From Cytophagales bacterium (GTDB taxonomy: Bacteria; Bacteroidota; Bacteroidia; Cytophagales; Bernardetiaceae): 64,000 bases of DNA. The translations under genes and the position numbers were made by a program. Location: positions 1 to 64,000 of the forward strand of contig JAAFJX010000006.1 of assembly GCA_013299045.1 (NCBI GenBank), written 5' to 3'. The notes under the pieces were generated by a model, which was not told where the DNA came from, ran no database searches, and saw nothing but the letters and a program-made list of their open reading frames with translations. Each line of letters starts with the position of its first letter. Positions within the stretch are counted from its first letter, which is position 1. Shown here piece after piece: positions 1 through 37,195 of this stretch.

Positions 1-1
1 C

Positions 2-280
2 TTCAATATTATGGCAGTAGATTTGTTTTTGCGAACAGGCAGACACGAATTTGCGTTTATGAATAGCGAAAAAATAAGTCATTCGCCTACTTCGCCTGAG
101 CATTTATACCAAAATTATACGATTGACGTACTCATCAAAGACGAAAAAACACAAGCCATTTTTACGCATCCTTGGTACAACGATATTGAAAAACTAATCG
201 AGCAAACTAAGCCAACAGCAAGGGAAATAGACGAAAGTCAATTAGACACAAGAGAAAATTTTGATGAAATAGACGAATAA
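2..280 (+). CDS. C-terminal end of an unrecognised protein, cut by the window start
   Basis: The frame is open from the first bases of the window, so this is the tail of a longer gene. About 92 residues are visible, ending in an acidic stretch (DTRENFDEIDE). It lies 69 bases upstream of the TrlF-like gene on the same strand, in the same AT-rich composition. By position it could be the end of a restriction subunit (HsdR-type) or another defence component, since the two genes after it are an ATPase/nuclease and a methylase-specificity fusion that lacks a visible restriction subunit. I recognise no domain in the visible part, so the function is unassigned and the HsdR idea is inference from context only. 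Confidence 0.6.
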   Translation, partial: FNIMAVDLFLRTGRHEFAFMNSEKISHSPTSPEHLYQNYTIDVLIKDEKTQAIFTHPWYNDIEKLIEQTKPTAREIDESQLDTRENFDEIDE

Positions 281-349
281 TTTTTATTTTACACAAATGT
301 GTGTTGTATTTGCACGTAGATGTAACATAAATCATAAACAACCAAAAAA

Positions 350-3040
350 ATGAATAATTATAATCAATATCCAAAAGGCTCTGAATGGTTAAAGTGGGAT
401 TTGCATATTCATAGCCCATTAACACATCTAAACAATCAGTTCAATGATGATTGGGAAAATTGGATTAAAAAACTAATTGAAAATAATATTAGGGTAATTG
501 GCTTAACCAACTACTTTAGATTTGCTGAAAATGAAATAGAAATAGTTAGAGAAAAACTAAATATGTATAATATATTAGTTTTACCTAACTTAGAGTTTCG
601 TATTGCACAACCTAATAAAAGCGGGGATTATATAAATTTGCATATTATTTTTAATCAAATTGTAACAACCGAAAGCATTAATCAATTTTTAAACAGATTG
701 AAGACAAGAGATGACAGATATTGTTTTAGCCTTAGTGCCAGAAATGATTTTGAAACTGTAGTTATTAATGAAGAAACACTAATTAATCAACTTAAAGAAG
801 ATTTCAAAGAAAAAAATCAATATTTTGTTGTATGTTGTCCAAATGGATATGGCGGGTTTCGTTCTGATAATAATGTTGGTAGAAGTGTATCTGTTGCTCA
901 AATTTTTGATAAAATGGCAGACTTCTTTTTTGGACGTTCTCAAGATAAAAGTCATTTTTTAAATACTGAAAGATATGAAAATGCACTACAAAAACCTGTT
1001 ATATTTGCTTCAGATGCACATAAAATAGATGTTATAGGGTTACAAAATTTTACTTGGATAAAAGCCAACCCAACCTTTGAAGGCTTGAGGCAAATTATTT
1101 TTGAGCCTGAATATAGGGTAAAAATACAAGAAGAAAAACCAGAGCAGAAAAGAAAGTCAGATTTTATAGATAAAGTTAGGTTTGTAGATGCTTCTGATGG
1201 ATTAGTATTTAAGAATGATTGGATAGAATTAAACCCAAATCTTAATGCAATCATTGGTGGTAAATCTACAGGAAAAACTTTACTGCTTCATTATATTGTG
1301 CAAACTATAGGTTATACTGAAAAGAAATATGACTTCAAAAATGATTTTGAGGTAATGTGGGCTGATGGAGAAACGTACAAACTAAGTGATAATTCTAAAA
1401 AACAAAGACCTGTTACTTATATTGCCCAACAAGATTTAATAAATATCGCAGAAAACAATAAACAGTTTTCTGAATTAGTTTTGACATTTTTACAAGAAAA
1501 AAATAATTTCCAAAATGAATTTGAAAAATTAGAAAATAATGTAAAAGGCATTAAAGTATCTATTAGTGATAATATTACTCAATATTTATTATTATTAGAA
1601 AATTTACAAAGTGAGAAAGACAAAAAATTAGGTGATAAAATTGCCAAACAAAATGAAATAAAAGAAAATCAAGAAAAAATAAAAAAAATTGAAGAAAAAG
1701 CAAATATTTCTCAAGAACAAAAAAATGAACTTGAAAAATTAAAAGAACAAAAAAACGAACTTGAAAAAAATATAAGAAATAAAGAAAATATATTTTCTAT
1801 TTTAAGAGAATATAAAACTATTACTTTATCTAAAATAAAAGCATTAAAAAATGATTTGCTTCGTGAAAAAGAAACAATAGAATTAAAATTTAATTCTCAA
1901 AACTTAGGTAAGGAAATATTAGATAGTATTAAAATTGATACTTTGATTGAAGAATTCAATCTAAAGATTGATAACAATTTTATTGTAAGTGAAAATATTG
2001 AACAAAAAATTATAGGGTTAAACACCCAATTAGGGCAAATAAATATTCAGATAGAAAACATAACTAATTTATTAGGTAGCGAAGATGCAATAAAAAAATT
2101 GCAAAATGAAATTAGTGATTTTCAAAATGAAATAGTAATTATTGAAAAAAATGAAAAATTAGTACAAGAATATACTGATAAATTAAATAATTTATCAAAT
2201 AGCATCTTTAAAAGATATGAAGATTTAATCAATGAATATCAAAACTTCATAAATACTATTAATGCAACTTCAGATTATTCAGCATTGATACCTGAAAGTA
2301 ACATAAATCTAACTGCATCATTAGAATATAACAATGAAAATTTTAATGGTAATTTTATTACTTGTTTCAATGGTAAACAAATATCAAGCACTTTTTCAAA
2401 TATTTTTCCAAATAGCGAATACACATTTGCTGGTAAAACCACACATTTAGAAACTATAAAGAAAATATTTAATATTATCACAACGAAAGAAAATTTGCCT
2501 TACAACAAAAATAAAGACATTAAAATATCTATAGAGGCATTATTCAATAATAATTTTTCTTATAAATTTAACCTTAATCAAGATGGAGATGATATACTAA
2601 AAATGTCCCCAGGTAAGAAAGGACTTGTTTTATTAAAACTTCATTTGTCATTACAACAAGCAAAATATCCAATCTTGATAGACCAACCTGAAGATAATTT
2701 GGATAATAGAACTGTTTTTCAAGAATTGAAAGATTTTATAAAAACAAAAAAAATACAAAGGCAAATCATTATTGTAACTCACAATGCTAATTTAGTTGTT
2801 GCTACAGATGCTGAACAGATTATTGTTGCAAATCAAAAAGGGCAAAATGGAACAGAACAACAAGAATATCAATTTGAATATATAACAGGTGCTTTGGAAT
2901 ATTCTTTTGAAAAGAAATCTAACAAAGGTATTTTATACGATAAAGGTATAAAAGAACACGTTTGTGAAATTTTGGAAGGTGGAAAAGAAGCCTTTAAGAA
3001 AAGAGATGAAAAATATGGTTTTACATCAAATAACAAATAA
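350..3040 (+). CDS. TrlF-like PHP-domain and SMC/ABC-type ATPase (defence-associated)
   Basis: The 896-residue protein has two parts. The N-terminus carries a PHP-type metal phosphoesterase signature: D17-L-H19-I-H21, then a SDAH motif near residue 222. A split SMC/ABC-type ATPase follows: Walker A GGKSTGKT at residues 303-310, a long lysine/glutamate-rich coiled coil at about 390-660, an ABC signature-like SPGKKG near 753, Walker B with LIDQPEDNLD near 776, and a THNAN H-loop near 809. This architecture matches the TrlF family, often found beside restriction-modification genes. The likely role is a nucleic-acid-sensing ATPase driving a metal-dependent nuclease, which is inference. The next gene starts two bases after the stop, so the two are probably co-transcribed. 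Base composition is much more AT-rich than the efflux operon to the right, consistent with horizontal transfer. Confidence 0.85.
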   Translation: MNNYNQYPKGSEWLKWDLHIHSPLTHLNNQFNDDWENWIKKLIENNIRVIGLTNYFRFAENEIEIVREKLNMYNILVLPNLEFRIAQPNKSGDYINLHIIFNQIVTTESINQFLNRLKTRDDRYCFSLSARNDFETVVINEETLINQLKEDFKEKNQYFVVCCPNGYGGFRSDNNVGRSVSVAQIFDKMADFFFGRSQDKSHFLNTERYENALQKPVIFASDAHKIDVIGLQNFTWIKANPTFEGLRQIIFEPEYRVKIQEEKPEQKRKSDFIDKVRFVDASDGLVFKNDWIELNPNLNAIIGGKSTGKTLLLHYIVQTIGYTEKKYDFKNDFEVMWADGETYKLSDNSKKQRPVTYIAQQDLINIAENNKQFSELVLTFLQEKNNFQNEFEKLENNVKGIKVSISDNITQYLLLLENLQSEKDKKLGDKIAKQNEIKENQEKIKKIEEKANISQEQKNELEKLKEQKNELEKNIRNKENIFSILREYKTITLSKIKALKNDLLREKETIELKFNSQNLGKEILDSIKIDTLIEEFNLKIDNNFIVSENIEQKIIGLNTQLGQINIQIENITNLLGSEDAIKKLQNEISDFQNEIVIIEKNEKLVQEYTDKLNNLSNSIFKRYEDLINEYQNFINTINATSDYSALIPESNINLTASLEYNNENFNGNFITCFNGKQISSTFSNIFPNSEYTFAGKTTHLETIKKIFNIITTKENLPYNKNKDIKISIEALFNNNFSYKFNLNQDGDDILKMSPGKKGLVLLKLHLSLQQAKYPILIDQPEDNLDNRTVFQELKDFIKTKKIQRQIIIVTHNANLVVATDAEQIIVANQKGQNGTEQQEYQFEYITGALEYSFEKKSNKGILYDKGIKEHVCEILEGGKEAFKKRDEKYGFTSNNK

Positions 3041-3042
3041 CT

Positions 3043-5019
3043 ATGCAAAACCTATTCGAAACCCAACCCGAAACTTCCCTACTAAAAAAGTTTTCAGAAA
3101 TCCATAACAGCATTTATGCTAATGATGGACTTTCTTCACAACAAGCCTTAGATGAAATGCTTAAAGTCTTATTTATCAAGGTTTTTGATGAAAAAGAGAG
3201 TAGCAAACAGTTTTTTATAAGCAACGAGGAGTTTAACGAAATCAAGTCAGGTAGAAAAAATAAAACCTTTCTACAACGCATAGAAAGTTTATTTCAAAAG
3301 ACAATTCAAGGTTTTTCTGACATTTTTGAGGCAAACGAAAGTATAAAACTTAGCCCTATTGCCTTATCTTTTGCTATCAATAAACTACAAAGTATTGATT
3401 TTTCAGATACAACAGACGCTAAAGGTTTGGCTTTTCAAAAATTTTTGGCAAATACAGAAAAGGCAGACAGAGGGCAGTTTTTTACGCCAGAGCCTGTAAT
3501 AAATTTTTGTGTACAGTTTTTACAACCGCAACCTAACGAGAAAATTATAGACCCAACTTGTGGAAGTGGCGGTTTTTTGTTTTCTGCCTATCAGTATCTA
3601 TTAGATAACTTTCAAGTTTCCAAACAAGAAATTATCCCTAATTTATTTGGCATTGATATTAACAAAACTATTGTAAAAATTGCCAAAATGAAATTATTGT
3701 TAGAGTGTAATACAAATTTGAATATTATTGCTCAAAATTCTTTAGAAGATTTGGACGAGTTGGCTTTATCTTTTGGGCAACCTATTGAAAAGCAAATAGA
3801 TATAGTTTTAGCAAATCCGCCTTTTGGCACAATGGGAAAAATTACCAACGAAAAGTTACTGAAAAAATATGAATTGGGTTATAAATGGCAAGGCGAAAAT
3901 TATAACTATTATAAAACTAAAACTTTGCATACAGGGCAAACACCTGAAATTTTGTTTATTGAAAGATGTTTGCAACTTTTAAAAGAAGGTGGTAGAATGG
4001 CTATTGTGTTGCCTAATGGAATGTTTGAAAATCCATCTTTGGAATATTTGCGCATTTTTATTAAGCAGAAAGCAAGGGTTTTAGCGGTTGTAAATTTGCC
4101 GCAAGAAACTTTTATACCTTTTGGAACAGGTGTAAAAACTTCCATTTTATTCTTGCAAAAAGAAAGTGAGATAGATTTAAGTAAAAAAGTGTTTTTTGGT
4201 AGAATTACCAAATTAGGTTATCAAGGTAATAAAAATGGTAATCCAATTTATCAAAAAGATGAATTTGGTAATTTTCTGAAAAATGAAAACAAAGAACTAA
4301 TTTTAGAGGAAGATTTTACTAAAATTATCAATGACTATAAAATATTTCAACAAACCAACGAATTAGAAACTGCAAACAGTTTTTTGTTTCCTGTTGCTGA
4401 ATTGAATGGTAGATTTGACTTTGATTATTACGCACCGCAAAACCGCAAATTACTCAATAAATTAAAAAGCCTCAATGCGGTAAAACTTTCGGAAATTTGC
4501 GATATTGTAAAAACGAAAAGTAAAAAACTTGCACAACTTAACGAAATGGTAGATTATATCGAACTTTCAGACATCAACACGCATAGTTACGAAATAATCA
4601 ATGCCAACAGTTATTTAGTCCACGAATTGCCAAGCAGAGCAAGTTACGAAGTGAGAGAAAACGACATTTTAACCGCAGTTGCAGGTAATTCTATAGGTAC
4701 GCACAAACACGCAACAGCCTTAGCAACAAAAGATTATGAAGGAAATATTTGCACAAATGGTTTTCGCATTTTGCGAAATTGCAAAGTGGATTTATATTAT
4801 TTGTTGTATTATTTGCGTTCAGAAATGTTTTTAAAGCAAGTTTTTATGTATCGCACAGGTGCAGCAATTCCTAATATTTCCGATTTTGATTTAAACAGAA
4901 TTTTGGTATATTTGCCAACAGAAAATATTTTACAAGAAGTTAGCGAGAAAGTTCGTTATTCTTTTGAACTCCGCAAACAAGCAAAAGAGGAAGTAGAAAA
5001 AATAACAGTTGAGTTTTAG
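3043..5019 (+). CDS. Type I-like N6-adenine DNA methylase fused to an HsdS-type specificity domain
   Basis: The 658-residue protein starts like HsdM, with a helical N-terminal domain, then GQFFTPE near residue 144, the SAM-binding motif DPTCGSGG at residue 170 and the catalytic NPPF motif at residue 258. These define an N6-adenine methylase. From about residue 470 to the end it looks like a single HsdS target-recognition half (an LSEICDIV-type start, a DILTAVAG stretch and a helical end). It is therefore a one-chain M-S fusion rather than separate HsdM and HsdS. A single recognition half suggests a dimer reading a palindromic site or a half-site, as in some Type I and Type IIB/IIG enzymes; this is inference. 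No restriction subunit is visible in the window unless it is the truncated upstream gene. It directly follows the TrlF-like gene. Confidence 0.88.
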   Translation: MQNLFETQPETSLLKKFSEIHNSIYANDGLSSQQALDEMLKVLFIKVFDEKESSKQFFISNEEFNEIKSGRKNKTFLQRIESLFQKTIQGFSDIFEANESIKLSPIALSFAINKLQSIDFSDTTDAKGLAFQKFLANTEKADRGQFFTPEPVINFCVQFLQPQPNEKIIDPTCGSGGFLFSAYQYLLDNFQVSKQEIIPNLFGIDINKTIVKIAKMKLLLECNTNLNIIAQNSLEDLDELALSFGQPIEKQIDIVLANPPFGTMGKITNEKLLKKYELGYKWQGENYNYYKTKTLHTGQTPEILFIERCLQLLKEGGRMAIVLPNGMFENPSLEYLRIFIKQKARVLAVVNLPQETFIPFGTGVKTSILFLQKESEIDLSKKVFFGRITKLGYQGNKNGNPIYQKDEFGNFLKNENKELILEEDFTKIINDYKIFQQTNELETANSFLFPVAELNGRFDFDYYAPQNRKLLNKLKSLNAVKLSEICDIVKTKSKKLAQLNEMVDYIELSDINTHSYEIINANSYLVHELPSRASYEVRENDILTAVAGNSIGTHKHATALATKDYEGNICTNGFRILRNCKVDLYYLLYYLRSEMFLKQVFMYRTGAAIPNISDFDLNRILVYLPTENILQEVSEKVRYSFELRKQAKEEVEKITVEF

Positions 5020-5049
5020 AACGACACAACAAACCACGCACAACACAGT

Positions 5050-5108
5050 CTTGGCGCAAGTGGGGCTAAAGTGCTGATTTATAAGTCTAATTCCCCACTT
5101 GCGCCAAG
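5050..5108. repeat. 16-bp perfect inverted repeat downstream of the defence block
   Basis: Arms 5050-5065 (CTTGGCGCAAGTGGGG) and 5093-5108 are exact reverse complements, separated by 27 bases. It begins 30 bases after the methylase-specificity stop codon. It is GC-rich compared with the AT-rich genes before it and is not followed by a T-run, so it is not a standard intrinsic terminator. It could be a recombination site (attC-like), a processing hairpin or a REP-like element. Confidence 0.7.
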
Positions 5109-34717: not shown

Positions 34718-37195
34718 ATGAATAAGGCATTGTTGTATAGAGTTTTAAATAGGCGCGCTCAAATTCAGGACGCACAAGAACTAGATGTTTTTATAGAGCA
34801 GTATCCCTATTTCTCTGTTCCCTACCTACTAAAAGCGGATACTACACATGAACAAAACGACATATACGATGCTGCCCTGCGTCTCTATGACCGAAGCAGA
34901 TTAAAAAAGAGATTAGCAGATAGCAGGTTACACGCCCTTAAAACAGAAGAAGATATTTTTGCGAGCGTGCAAAAACAACAGCCTGCTCAGCCTCTGGATA
35001 GTTTTTATCCGCAAACCAAAGAAAAAACAAATGAAAGTGATACTACCGAGGCATCGGCAATAGGTCTAGAAGTGCCCTCAAATATCATAAAAGAGGCAGA
35101 GGTAGAGCCTGCAATTACTCAAGAGGTTACTGATAAAAAACACCTCGCATCAAACAGTGCAGTAGCAGAAGCCAATGCAGAGAGCAGTCTGCTCAATGAA
35201 GAAACATCAAACTTGGCGCATTCTGAGCTTGAGGCTAATGTAACTGCGTTGCCTCAAAATACTGACGGCTCTGAAACAGCGAAAGTATCTGAGGCGGAAC
35301 TGACTCTGACTGACGAACATAAAAAAGAAAACTCTGAAAAAATACTGTCAGACGAAGAACACGCTGCTTTAGAATTAAATGTTATAAAGGCTAAGTTGTT
35401 GGATTATGATGACGACCCCGACCATGAAGACGACCACAAAGAGCTGGTAGAGGTGGCACATGAGGTATATGATAAGGACAGGGACGAGCATGGTCATTGG
35501 CTGGATTCAGACGGCGACGGCATTCCTGACCACTTGGACAAAGATGCAGAGCTGGACGAAAATGCCGATATTGACCACGCCGACGACCACAGCGAGTTGG
35601 TAGAAGCAGCCCACGACACCCACGATAAGGACAAGGAGGAACACGGCCACTGGCAAGACTCAGATGGCGACGGCATTCCCGACCACTTGGACAAAGAGGC
35701 AGAGCTGGACGAAAATGCCGATATTGACCACGCTGACGACCACAGCGAGTTGGTAGAAGCAGCCCACGACACCCACGATAAGGACAAGGACGAACACGGC
35801 CATTGGCAAGACTCAGACGGCGACGGCATTCCCGACCACTTAGACAAAGAGGCAGAGCTAGACGAAAATGCCGATATTGACCACGCTGACGACCACAGCG
35901 AGTTGGTAGAAGCAGCCCACGACACCCACGATAAGGACAAGGATGAACACGGCCATTGGCAAGACTCAGACGGCGATGGCATTCCCGACCACTTAGACAA
36001 AGAGGCAGGACTAGACGAAAATGCCGATATTGACCATGAGGAGGACTATAACGAACTTATATATTCTCATACGAACTTACGCGACTCTGACAAAGAGCAA
36101 CATGGCCATTGGCAAGACTCGGACGGCGACGGCATTCCTGACCACTTGGACAAAGAGGCAGAGCTAGATGAAAATGCCGATATTGACCACGCCGACGACC
36201 ATAGCGAGCTACTAGAAGCCACCCACGACACCCACGATAAGGACAAAGAGCAACACGGCCATTGGCAAGACTCGGACGGCGACGGCATTCCCGACCACTT
36301 GGACAAAGACGCAGGGCTAGACGAAAATGCCGATATTGACCATGAGGAGGACTATAACGAACTTATATATTCTCATACGAACTTACGCGATTCTGACAAA
36401 GAGCAACATGGTCATTGGCAAGACTCAGACGGCGACGGCATTCCCGACCACTTGGACAAAGATGCAGAGCTAGATGAAAATGCCGATATTGACCATACCG
36501 ACGACCACCGCGAACTCGTTGAAATTCGGCACGAAGACCACGATAAAGATAAAGAAGAGCACGGTCATTGGCAAGACTCAGACGGCGACGGCATTCCTGA
36601 CCACTTGGACAAAGAGGCAGAGCTAGACGAAAGCGCCGATATTGACCACGCCGACGACCACCGCGAACTCGTTGAAATTCGGCACGAAGACCACGATAAA
36701 GATAAAGAAGAGCACGGCCATTGGCAAGACTCAGACGGCGACGGCATTCCTGACCACTTGGACAAAGATGCAGAGCTAGACGAAAGCGCCGATATTGACC
36801 ACGCCGACGACCACCGCGAACTCGTTGTTGCCTCACACGCTATCTTTGATACAGATAAAAATGAATTTGGCCATTGGCAAGACTCAGACGGCGACGGTAT
36901 TCCCGACTATCTGGATAAGGATTCTCTTAGCGCTCCAGTTGCCAAGACTGACCTTCTAGACTATGAGCTGCCTTCCCTCTTGCACGTACCAGCACCCATC
37001 GGCAAGAAGAATTCCCGCTACCACTATTCTTTCTTTGATGAGGCAGCGCATTTGCTCAAAAGCAATAGTTCCAGCATTATAGATGAAACAGCTATTTATC
37101 TACGTCCCATCAAAAAACAAGCGCCAGCTCCGCCTACAAAGCTGGACGAAAAAGAGTCGTTTTTTGATGATAAACATGACACCGCCGAAGACTAA
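34718..37195 (+). CDS. Cytosolic-type protein with about ten TSP3-like calcium-binding repeats
   Basis: The protein has 825 residues. Its N-terminus (residues 1-75; ALLYRVLNRRAQIQDAQ, then IEQYPYFSVPYLLKA) belongs to a Bacteroidota domain with a YPYF motif that lacks a signal peptide. A low-complexity Glu/Ala/Thr region follows at about 85-220. From about residue 258 to 734 come ten copies of DSDGDGIPD-HLD, the thrombospondin type 3 Ca-binding motif, spaced 51 residues apart in HGHW-to-HDKDK units. The C-terminus (YHYSFFDEAAHLL) is unrelated. TSP3 repeats usually sit in exported proteins, so their presence without a signal peptide is odd. The units differ mostly by a few residues, and two variant units (EEDYNELIYSHTN) recur, which suggests unit duplication and gene conversion. 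Confidence 0.85.
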   Translation: MNKALLYRVLNRRAQIQDAQELDVFIEQYPYFSVPYLLKADTTHEQNDIYDAALRLYDRSRLKKRLADSRLHALKTEEDIFASVQKQQPAQPLDSFYPQTKEKTNESDTTEASAIGLEVPSNIIKEAEVEPAITQEVTDKKHLASNSAVAEANAESSLLNEETSNLAHSELEANVTALPQNTDGSETAKVSEAELTLTDEHKKENSEKILSDEEHAALELNVIKAKLLDYDDDPDHEDDHKELVEVAHEVYDKDRDEHGHWLDSDGDGIPDHLDKDAELDENADIDHADDHSELVEAAHDTHDKDKEEHGHWQDSDGDGIPDHLDKEAELDENADIDHADDHSELVEAAHDTHDKDKDEHGHWQDSDGDGIPDHLDKEAELDENADIDHADDHSELVEAAHDTHDKDKDEHGHWQDSDGDGIPDHLDKEAGLDENADIDHEEDYNELIYSHTNLRDSDKEQHGHWQDSDGDGIPDHLDKEAELDENADIDHADDHSELLEATHDTHDKDKEQHGHWQDSDGDGIPDHLDKDAGLDENADIDHEEDYNELIYSHTNLRDSDKEQHGHWQDSDGDGIPDHLDKDAELDENADIDHTDDHRELVEIRHEDHDKDKEEHGHWQDSDGDGIPDHLDKEAELDESADIDHADDHRELVEIRHEDHDKDKEEHGHWQDSDGDGIPDHLDKDAELDESADIDHADDHRELVVASHAIFDTDKNEFGHWQDSDGDGIPDYLDKDSLSAPVAKTDLLDYELPSLLHVPAPIGKKNSRYHYSFFDEAAHLLKSNSSSIIDETAIYLRPIKKQAPAPPTKLDEKESFFDDKHDTAED
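35489..36918 (+). repeat. Tandem 153-bp coding repeats of the TSP3-like protein
   Basis: Ten GACGGCGACGGCATTCC-type units are spaced 153 bases apart, with near-identical DNA. The last two full units (36490-36790) are almost indistinguishable. Long open frames on the opposite strand here are by-products of this repetition. Confidence 0.9.

What the first reader, a model, noticed from the sequence alone, without database searches (positions are those of the whole stretch)
1..5019. TrlF-like PHP-ATPase paired with a one-chain methylase-specificity fusion
Seen: a PHP/SMC-type ATPase gene ends two bases before a gene that fuses an N6-adenine methylase to a single HsdS half. Known: TrlF-type ATPases are often found in defence islands, and Type I systems normally separate HsdM, HsdS and HsdR. 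Inference: a modified-DNA-marking enzyme coupled to a sensor-nuclease in place of HsdR, with the truncated gene at the window start as a third part. The block is far more AT-rich than the efflux operon beside it, which suggests recent transfer.
Basis: partly seen in the sequence, partly recalled or inferred. Interest (0 to 1): 0.62.

Follow-up and report, generated by a model that had tools for sequence, protein, structure and literature searches.

The report
Toxin-like gene nested in restriction cassette
A predicted toxin-like enzyme (TrlF) sits in an insertion slot between the cutting and marking genes of an ordinary two-gene bacterial DNA-defence system, a slot that is empty in some relatives and holds an unrelated predicted RNA-cutting toxin in others, which suggests an exchangeable backup weapon.

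Summary
TrlF (350-3040) and an N6-adenine methylase fused to one specificity half (MS, 3043-5019) lie 2 bp apart. The window starts at a contig end. The cut gene (2-280) is not HsdR: it is the C-terminus of a ~320-aa PD-(D/E)xK endonuclease (R). Its N-terminus is at the end of contig C43; about 474 bp, with part of the catalytic centre, are unassembled. R+MS is a conserved two-gene, Type II-like system: MS follows R in about 50 of 56 loci from many phyla, TrlF in none. TrlF is thus an insertion between R and MS. In the closest relatives (MS 78-93% identical) that slot is empty (2), or holds TrlF (2 with the window), a DUF4209/HEPN gene (3) or DUF4365 (1, decayed). The companion lies behind a promoter-like spacer and abuts MS. 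The two slot TrlFs share the PHP half (60-74%) but not the ATPase half: a domain swap. R-[slot]-MS has matched, attC-like cassette ends. Best explanation: a PrrC-like arrangement, a swappable latent toxin guarding restriction. The slot is shown; guarding is inferred. Replacement of R by TrlF fits this locus poorly, although R is undetected in two relatives.

The parts
2..280 (+). C-terminal 92 codons of R, a ~320-aa PD-(D/E)xK restriction endonuclease; the N-terminal 75 codons are at C43:1-225 (minus strand) and about 474 bp between them are unassembled
   Evidence: 28-37% identical to the C-terminus of R proteins upstream of MS elsewhere; both pieces 89% identical to the intact R of G397; fold of the family from an AlphaFold model. 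Adjacency of C43 and C62 is inferred.
281..349 (+). R-companion spacer with a promoter/operator-like sequence (TTTTACACAAATGTGT, then a TATTTG box) that is also present in empty-slot relatives
   Evidence: alignment of six loci; promoter function is inferred
350..3040 (+). TrlF: PHP domain (about residues 9-263; H19, H21, E82, H98, D222, H224) and SMC/Rad50-type ABC ATPase with coiled coil (about residues 271-890; Walker A to K309, signature S753-G755, Walker B D778/E781, H811)
   Evidence: NF045780 528.3 bits; alignments A2 and A4; model and fold search
3043..5019 (+). MS: N6-adenine methylase (about residues 125-430) fused to one HsdS-like target-recognition half (about residues 434-658)
   Evidence: N6_Mtase 140.7 bits; PADLOC MTase_II 276 bits and Specificity_I; PDB relatives BsaXI and Type I M/S subunits
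5035..5044 (+). CACGCACAAC, the 3' end of the cassette; exact complement of GTTGTGCGTG, which lies just before R on C43
   Evidence: same 3' end after MS in G406, same 5' end before R in G397
5050..5108 (.). attC-like hairpin (perfect 16-bp arms CTTGGCGCAAGTGGGG), member of a repeat family dispersed in this genome

Best explanation
A Type II-like restriction-modification cassette whose nuclease (R) and methylase-specificity fusion (MS) are separated by a companion slot, here holding TrlF. Shown: R+MS is a widespread two-gene unit; the slot is empty, TrlF, HEPN or DUF4365 in the closest relatives; the companion lies downstream of a conserved promoter-like spacer and abuts MS, so it is very probably co-expressed with MS. 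Inferred: MS methylates host sites and R cuts unmethylated phage DNA; TrlF is a latent toxin whose SMC-like ATPase senses that the restriction system is inhibited or overrun (for example by a phage anti-restriction protein, or by DNA ends), then lets the PHP metallo-phosphoesterase cut nucleic acid and stop growth of cell and phage. It would work like PrrC inside a Type I operon, with a PHP effector in place of a HEPN RNase.
For: R-MS pair in about 50 of 56 loci, no TrlF there. Slot contents in the eight-locus clade: empty 2, TrlF 2, DUF4209 3, DUF4365 1. DUF4209 proteins carry the HEPN RNase motif RNxxxH, and DUF4209 was assigned to HEPN and reported from R-M operons (PMC3710099). HEPN PrrC is the proven guard embedded in a Type Ic operon (PMC2610378; PMC12707154). 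TrlF lies between HsdS and HsdR in a Type I operon in L074. The TrlF ATPase profile matches PARIS AriA and retron PtuA; the PHP fold matches nucleases such as RNase AM. All catalytic motifs are intact. The ATPase was swapped while PHP and MS stayed, as expected if the sensor is under arms-race selection.
Against: No experiment. Most TrlF genes stand alone: about 8 of 53 full-length loci have R-M genes within 6 kb. R is undetected in G406 and G475, which keep companion and MS, so there is nothing of R to guard there. The catalytic centre of R is in an assembly gap here, so an intact R is not proven.
Confidence: 0.48

Rival explanations
1. Hitchhiker: TrlF is an autonomous single-gene defence that landed between R and MS and only borrows their promoter; there is no functional contact with R-M.
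For: On plasmids TrlF is usually solitary, in islands with a Gabija-like pair, Abi or BREX genes. About 45 of 53 full-length TrlFs have no R-M gene found within 6 kb. R+MS works without it in the wide family.
Against: The same slot is filled repeatedly and by unrelated nuclease-type genes, TrlF occurs there twice and also inside a Type I operon, and the companion always abuts MS.
Confidence: 0.3
2. Replacement: TrlF is the restriction effector guided by MS; R is dispensable or broken.
For: G406 has TrlF+MS and G475 has HEPN+MS with no R found in genomes rated 100% and 97% complete. The catalytic centre of R is missing from this assembly.
Against: Both ends of R are present and 89% identical to an intact R, with their reading frames open. 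R+MS without a companion is the common state. TrlF is common without any methylase.
Confidence: 0.15
3. Repair or housekeeping: TrlF is a Rad50/SMC-like end-processing enzyme that tidies the breaks made by R.
For: The fold resembles SMC/Rad50 heads and the PHP domains of DNA polymerase III.
Against: The slot alternates with predicted HEPN RNases, which are not repair enzymes; many R+MS pairs lack TrlF.
Confidence: 0.05

Closest known systems
PrrC in the EcoprrI Type Ic R-M operon (and RloC, a 'restriction-linked orf')
   Same: ABC-ATPase plus nuclease gene nested in an R-M operon; in L074 TrlF lies inside a Type I operon between HsdS and HsdR; only a minority of RloC genes map to R-M loci (8 of 72 in PMC2610378), as here for TrlF
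   Different: PHP metallo-phosphoesterase domain at the N-terminus instead of a C-terminal HEPN RNase; the host system is Type II-like (R + MS); no demonstrated silencing or trigger
DUF4209/HEPN companions of R-M operons (Anantharaman et al. 2013, PMC3710099)
   Same: The same slot in three near relatives (G397, G452, G475) holds such a gene
   Different: TrlF is unrelated in sequence and fold
TrlF of the Photorhabdus temperature-restricting locus (PMC7554251)
   Same: Same NCBIfam family; in Y. ruckeri pYR3 two small HsdM-type genes lie between trlR and trlF
   Different: No trlR/trlG here; whether TrlF itself acts in Photorhabdus was not shown
PARIS (AriA-AriB)
   Same: ABC-type ATPase sensor coupled to a nuclease, known to react to anti-restriction proteins; the TrlF profile matches AriA
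   Different: No AriB (Toprim) gene found beside TrlF; one-chain PHP-ATPase
R + M.S two-gene restriction systems (family of the Thermus plasmid pair, L082)
   Same: R 35-38% identical and MS 37-38% identical to the Thermus pair, same order
   Different: Extra gene between R and MS

Membership tests
TrlF family (NCBIfam NF045780) | whole-protein score above the curated cut-off | tested here: met
   528.3 bits against 350, full length
Type I R-M | HsdR with SF2 helicase motor | tested here: not met
   the upstream gene belongs to a ~320-aa PD-(D/E)xK family without helicase; the middle of the window's own copy is unassembled
Type I R-M | separate HsdS with two target-recognition domains | tested here: not met
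   one half fused to the methylase
Type II-like R + M.S system | conserved nuclease gene directly upstream of an M.S fusion | tested here: met
   about 50 of 56 loci and Thermus; TrlF is inserted between them here
Type II-like R + M.S system | R and MS act on the same site | not testable with these tools
   only indirect: the target-recognition part is as conserved as the methylase part
MADS (methylation-associated defence system) | MAD2 and MAD5 above cut-off | tested here: not met
   MAD2 321 bits against 720, MAD5 62 against 400
BREX | PglX above cut-off | tested here: not met
   45 bits against 500
PrrC/RloC anticodon nucleases | C-terminal HEPN RNase domain with Rx4-6H | tested here: not met
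   the window protein is full-length TrlF with an N-terminal PHP domain
PrrC-like guard of an R-M system (works like) | gene nested in an R-M operon | tested here: met
PrrC-like guard of an R-M system (works like) | silenced by the R-M enzyme and activated by anti-restriction | not testable with these tools
   needs an experiment
Integron gene cassette | matched ends and attC-like hairpins bracketing the unit | tested here: met
   10 of 10 complementary bases; 4 of 12 units with 9 or more contiguous matches, permutation p 1.5e-4; the strict core GTTRRRY is not matched by GTTGTGC
Integron gene cassette | integron integrase in the genome | tested here: inconclusive
   best candidate (C47) scores 196.6 against cut-off 265 and 210.4 against 220

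The most novel reading that the evidence does not exclude
A mobile restriction-modification cassette with a plug-in effector slot: unrelated toxins (PHP-SMC TrlF, HEPN DUF4209, DUF4365) are exchanged between R and MS while the methylation site stays fixed. Within TrlF the effector (PHP) half is kept while the sensor (ATPase and coiled coil) half is replaced, so the system can renew its trigger against phage anti-restriction without changing its site specificity.
Probability: 0.4. Interest if true: 0.75.

Novelty: new variant of a known kind. Interest (0 to 1): 0.55.

Why it matters
Companion toxins that guard restriction systems are established for Type I (PrrC), but the widespread TrlF family, common on enterobacterial plasmids, has no assigned biochemical role that I could find. 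A natural series of near-identical R-MS cassettes with empty, TrlF and HEPN slots gives a ready comparison: same methylase and probably the same site, different companion. It makes the question of what R-M-linked ATPases sense and what they cut directly testable, and the PHP-kept, ATPase-swapped pair suggests which half is effector and which is sensor.

Tried and rejected
Rejected: (1) truncated gene = HsdR: both pieces match a ~320-aa PD-(D/E)xK family. (2) TrlF as a normal part of the R-MS system: 0 of 56 R loci carry it in the fetched flanks. (3) BREX or MADS membership: far below cut-offs. (4) Phage-borne R-MS: no R relative found in viral contigs; TrlF occurs in some viral contigs, usually without R-M genes. 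(5) Type I-like hypervariable recognition domain: it is as conserved as the methylase. In one search three Type I query proteins were empty through a coordinate slip, so the count of R-M-linked TrlFs is a lower bound. My ORF caller missed MS in L060; tblastn recovered it. Foldseek alone gave only weak hits for R (best E 0.097); the PD-(D/E)xK assignment rests on the invariant motif plus the VIA-align second look. BLASTP with default composition adjustment missed the similar PHP halves of the two slot TrlFs; MAFFT and blastn showed them.

Full report
What is there. The window begins at base 1 of contig C62 of a 79-contig genome. Gene 350-3040 is a TrlF-family protein (NF045780, 528.3 bits, cut-off 350). 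Gene 3043-5019 is an N6-adenine methylase fused to one specificity half. They are separated by 2 bp. The block is AT-rich (TrlF 25%, MS 31% G+C) beside the 46% efflux operon. Low G+C is also seen in the companion genes of relatives (23-28% for the HEPN genes), so it is weak evidence of recent transfer by itself.

The truncated gene. The 92-aa piece at 2-280 matches the C-terminus of a 318-aa protein that lies directly upstream of MS in relatives. A search of the whole genome with that protein found its N-terminus at C43:22-219, minus strand; C43 ends in the codon of the conserved Asp. Both pieces are 89% identical to one intact 325-aa protein in relative G397, and alignment to G397 leaves about 474 bp between the contigs. 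The family has an invariant D, then E-x-K motif (D74, E89, K91). An AlphaFold model of a relative (pLDDT 81) aligns best to PD-(D/E)xK nucleases: I-Ssp6803I Z 10.2 (rmsd 4.0, 146 residues), Hjc Z 8.7, then SPARDA, HinP1I and HhaI; Foldseek alone was weak. So this is most likely a restriction endonuclease (R), not HsdR. Whether it is intact here is unknown, because the E-x-K part lies in the gap, and adjacency of C43 and C62 is inferred.

The core system. A profile of R found 56 loci in genome contigs labelled as many phyla (Bacteroidota, Chloroflexi, Planctomycetes, Nitrospirae, Spirochaetes, Microcystis and others; most are MAGs). MS lies directly downstream of R in about 50 of them, nearly always within 175 bp (one has a gap of about 0.8 kb), and TrlF is found in none. 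The pair also sits on a Thermus plasmid. Across 45 MS proteins the target-recognition part is as conserved as the methylase part, unlike what is usual for Type I HsdS (background knowledge). This suggests a fixed recognition site shared with a separately recognising R, a Type II logic (inference).

The slot. In 390 genomes of the same order, seven relatives have MS 78-93% identical over the aligned part (G420, at 61%, is left out); the window locus makes eight. Between R and MS: nothing (G536, G565; 57 bp), TrlF (window; G406), a DUF4209 protein (G397, G452, G475), or a DUF4365 gene in a decayed locus (G521). In G536 R carries a frameshift. A spacer TTTTACACAAATGTGT..TATATTTG is present in empty and filled loci, and the companion is inserted after it and within a few bases of the MS start; G406 lacks the spacer. 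It looks like a promoter with an inverted-repeat operator (inference). The three DUF4209 proteins share RN[DK][IV][AS]H; DUF4209 was assigned to the HEPN RNase superfamily and reported from R-M operons (PMC3710099). G406 and G475 have no detectable R; the G406 contig ends 143 bp upstream of TrlF.

Domain swap. Between the two slot TrlFs, residues 1-290 (PHP) are 60-74% identical but residues 291-896 only 20-38%. The G406 ATPase half is closer (40%, 26% and 62% over three parts) to the TrlF of a Type I operon in L074, and similarly close to that of L064. The DNA match between window and G406 stops within the PHP half near the junction and resumes at MS. So the PHP part stayed with MS while the SMC-type ATPase was replaced.

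TrlF elsewhere. In L074 the order is HsdM-HsdS-TrlF-HsdR with overlapping ends; in L069 TrlF overlaps HsdR. On plasmids TrlF mostly stands alone among defence genes (a Gabija-like pair, BREX, Abi). Of 53 full-length TrlFs, about 8 have R-M genes within 6 kb (a lower bound). The predicted structure is a PHP domain (2anu Z 15.3; RNase AM and Pol III PHP among Foldseek hits) plus an SMC/Rad50 head (4i99 Z 18.6) with coiled coil. The PHP metal-ligand candidates and ATPase motifs invariant in the family are all present. The ATPase profile also matches PARIS AriA and retron PtuA.

Mobility. The three genes are bracketed by attC-like hairpins (C43:291-393; window 5050-5108) of a repeat family with 70 pattern hits against 9 for the control. 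The unit starts GTTGTGCGTG and ends CACGCACAAC. Matched ends recur in other units (permutation p 1.5e-4). Homology to G397 begins at that same start, next to a different hairpin, and G406 carries the same 3' end. No clear integron integrase was identified.

Mechanism. Shown: gene order, conserved R-MS pair, repeated companion insertion, intact motifs, domain swap. Inferred: restriction by R, methylation by MS, and TrlF as a latent effector triggered when R-M fails, by analogy with PrrC (PMC2610378) and PARIS (PMC12707154) and by slot equivalence with predicted HEPN RNases. The main alternatives are an autonomous hitchhiker (0.3) and replacement of R (0.15).

Verdict. The 'in place of HsdR' reading does not fit this locus, but the suspicion of coupling is strengthened in another form: a companion slot in a Type II-like cassette. 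This is a new variant of a known kind.

Noticed in passing
window 5050-5108 and G000 contigs C4, C9, C15, C20, C23, C27, C29, C40, C43, C48, C50, C67 (L117-L128): A dispersed family of attC-like hairpins brackets units of one or a few genes (DNA methylases, a Type I R-M operon on C67, GNAT and DinB-like genes), several with 9-10 nt complementary ends: an integron-like cassette system scattered over a Bacteroidota-type chromosome.
   Followed up: partly
L132 3756-4823 (G000 C47), minus strand: Tyrosine recombinase scoring 210 bits against the XerA/integron-integrase model (cut-off 220), next to an SSB gene and cassette-like small genes; candidate enzyme for the attC-like sites.
   Followed up: partly
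L276 2248-4884 compared with window 350-3040: Two TrlF proteins in the same slot share the PHP half (60-74%) but not the ATPase half (20-38%): a domain swap at the PHP/ATPase junction.
   Followed up: yes
L074 5923-15150; L069 9119-15584: TrlF lies between HsdS and HsdR of a Type I operon (L074) and overlaps HsdR in another (L069).
   Followed up: partly
L128 (G000 C9:65940-76221): Genes that look like cas2, cas1 and a 1589-aa Cas9 lie beside a hairpin-bracketed unit holding a second HsdM-like methylase and a RhuM-like gene (by eye, no family scan).
   Followed up: no
L080 420-1391 (C43), minus strand: A 323-aa AT-rich gene directly upstream of the cassette hairpin, possibly HARE-HTH plus nuclease by eye; no Pfam or NCBIfam hit.
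   Followed up: no
window 35001-37000: Strong AT skew (0.30-0.36) with raised G+C (0.49-0.51), unlike the rest of the window.
   Followed up: no
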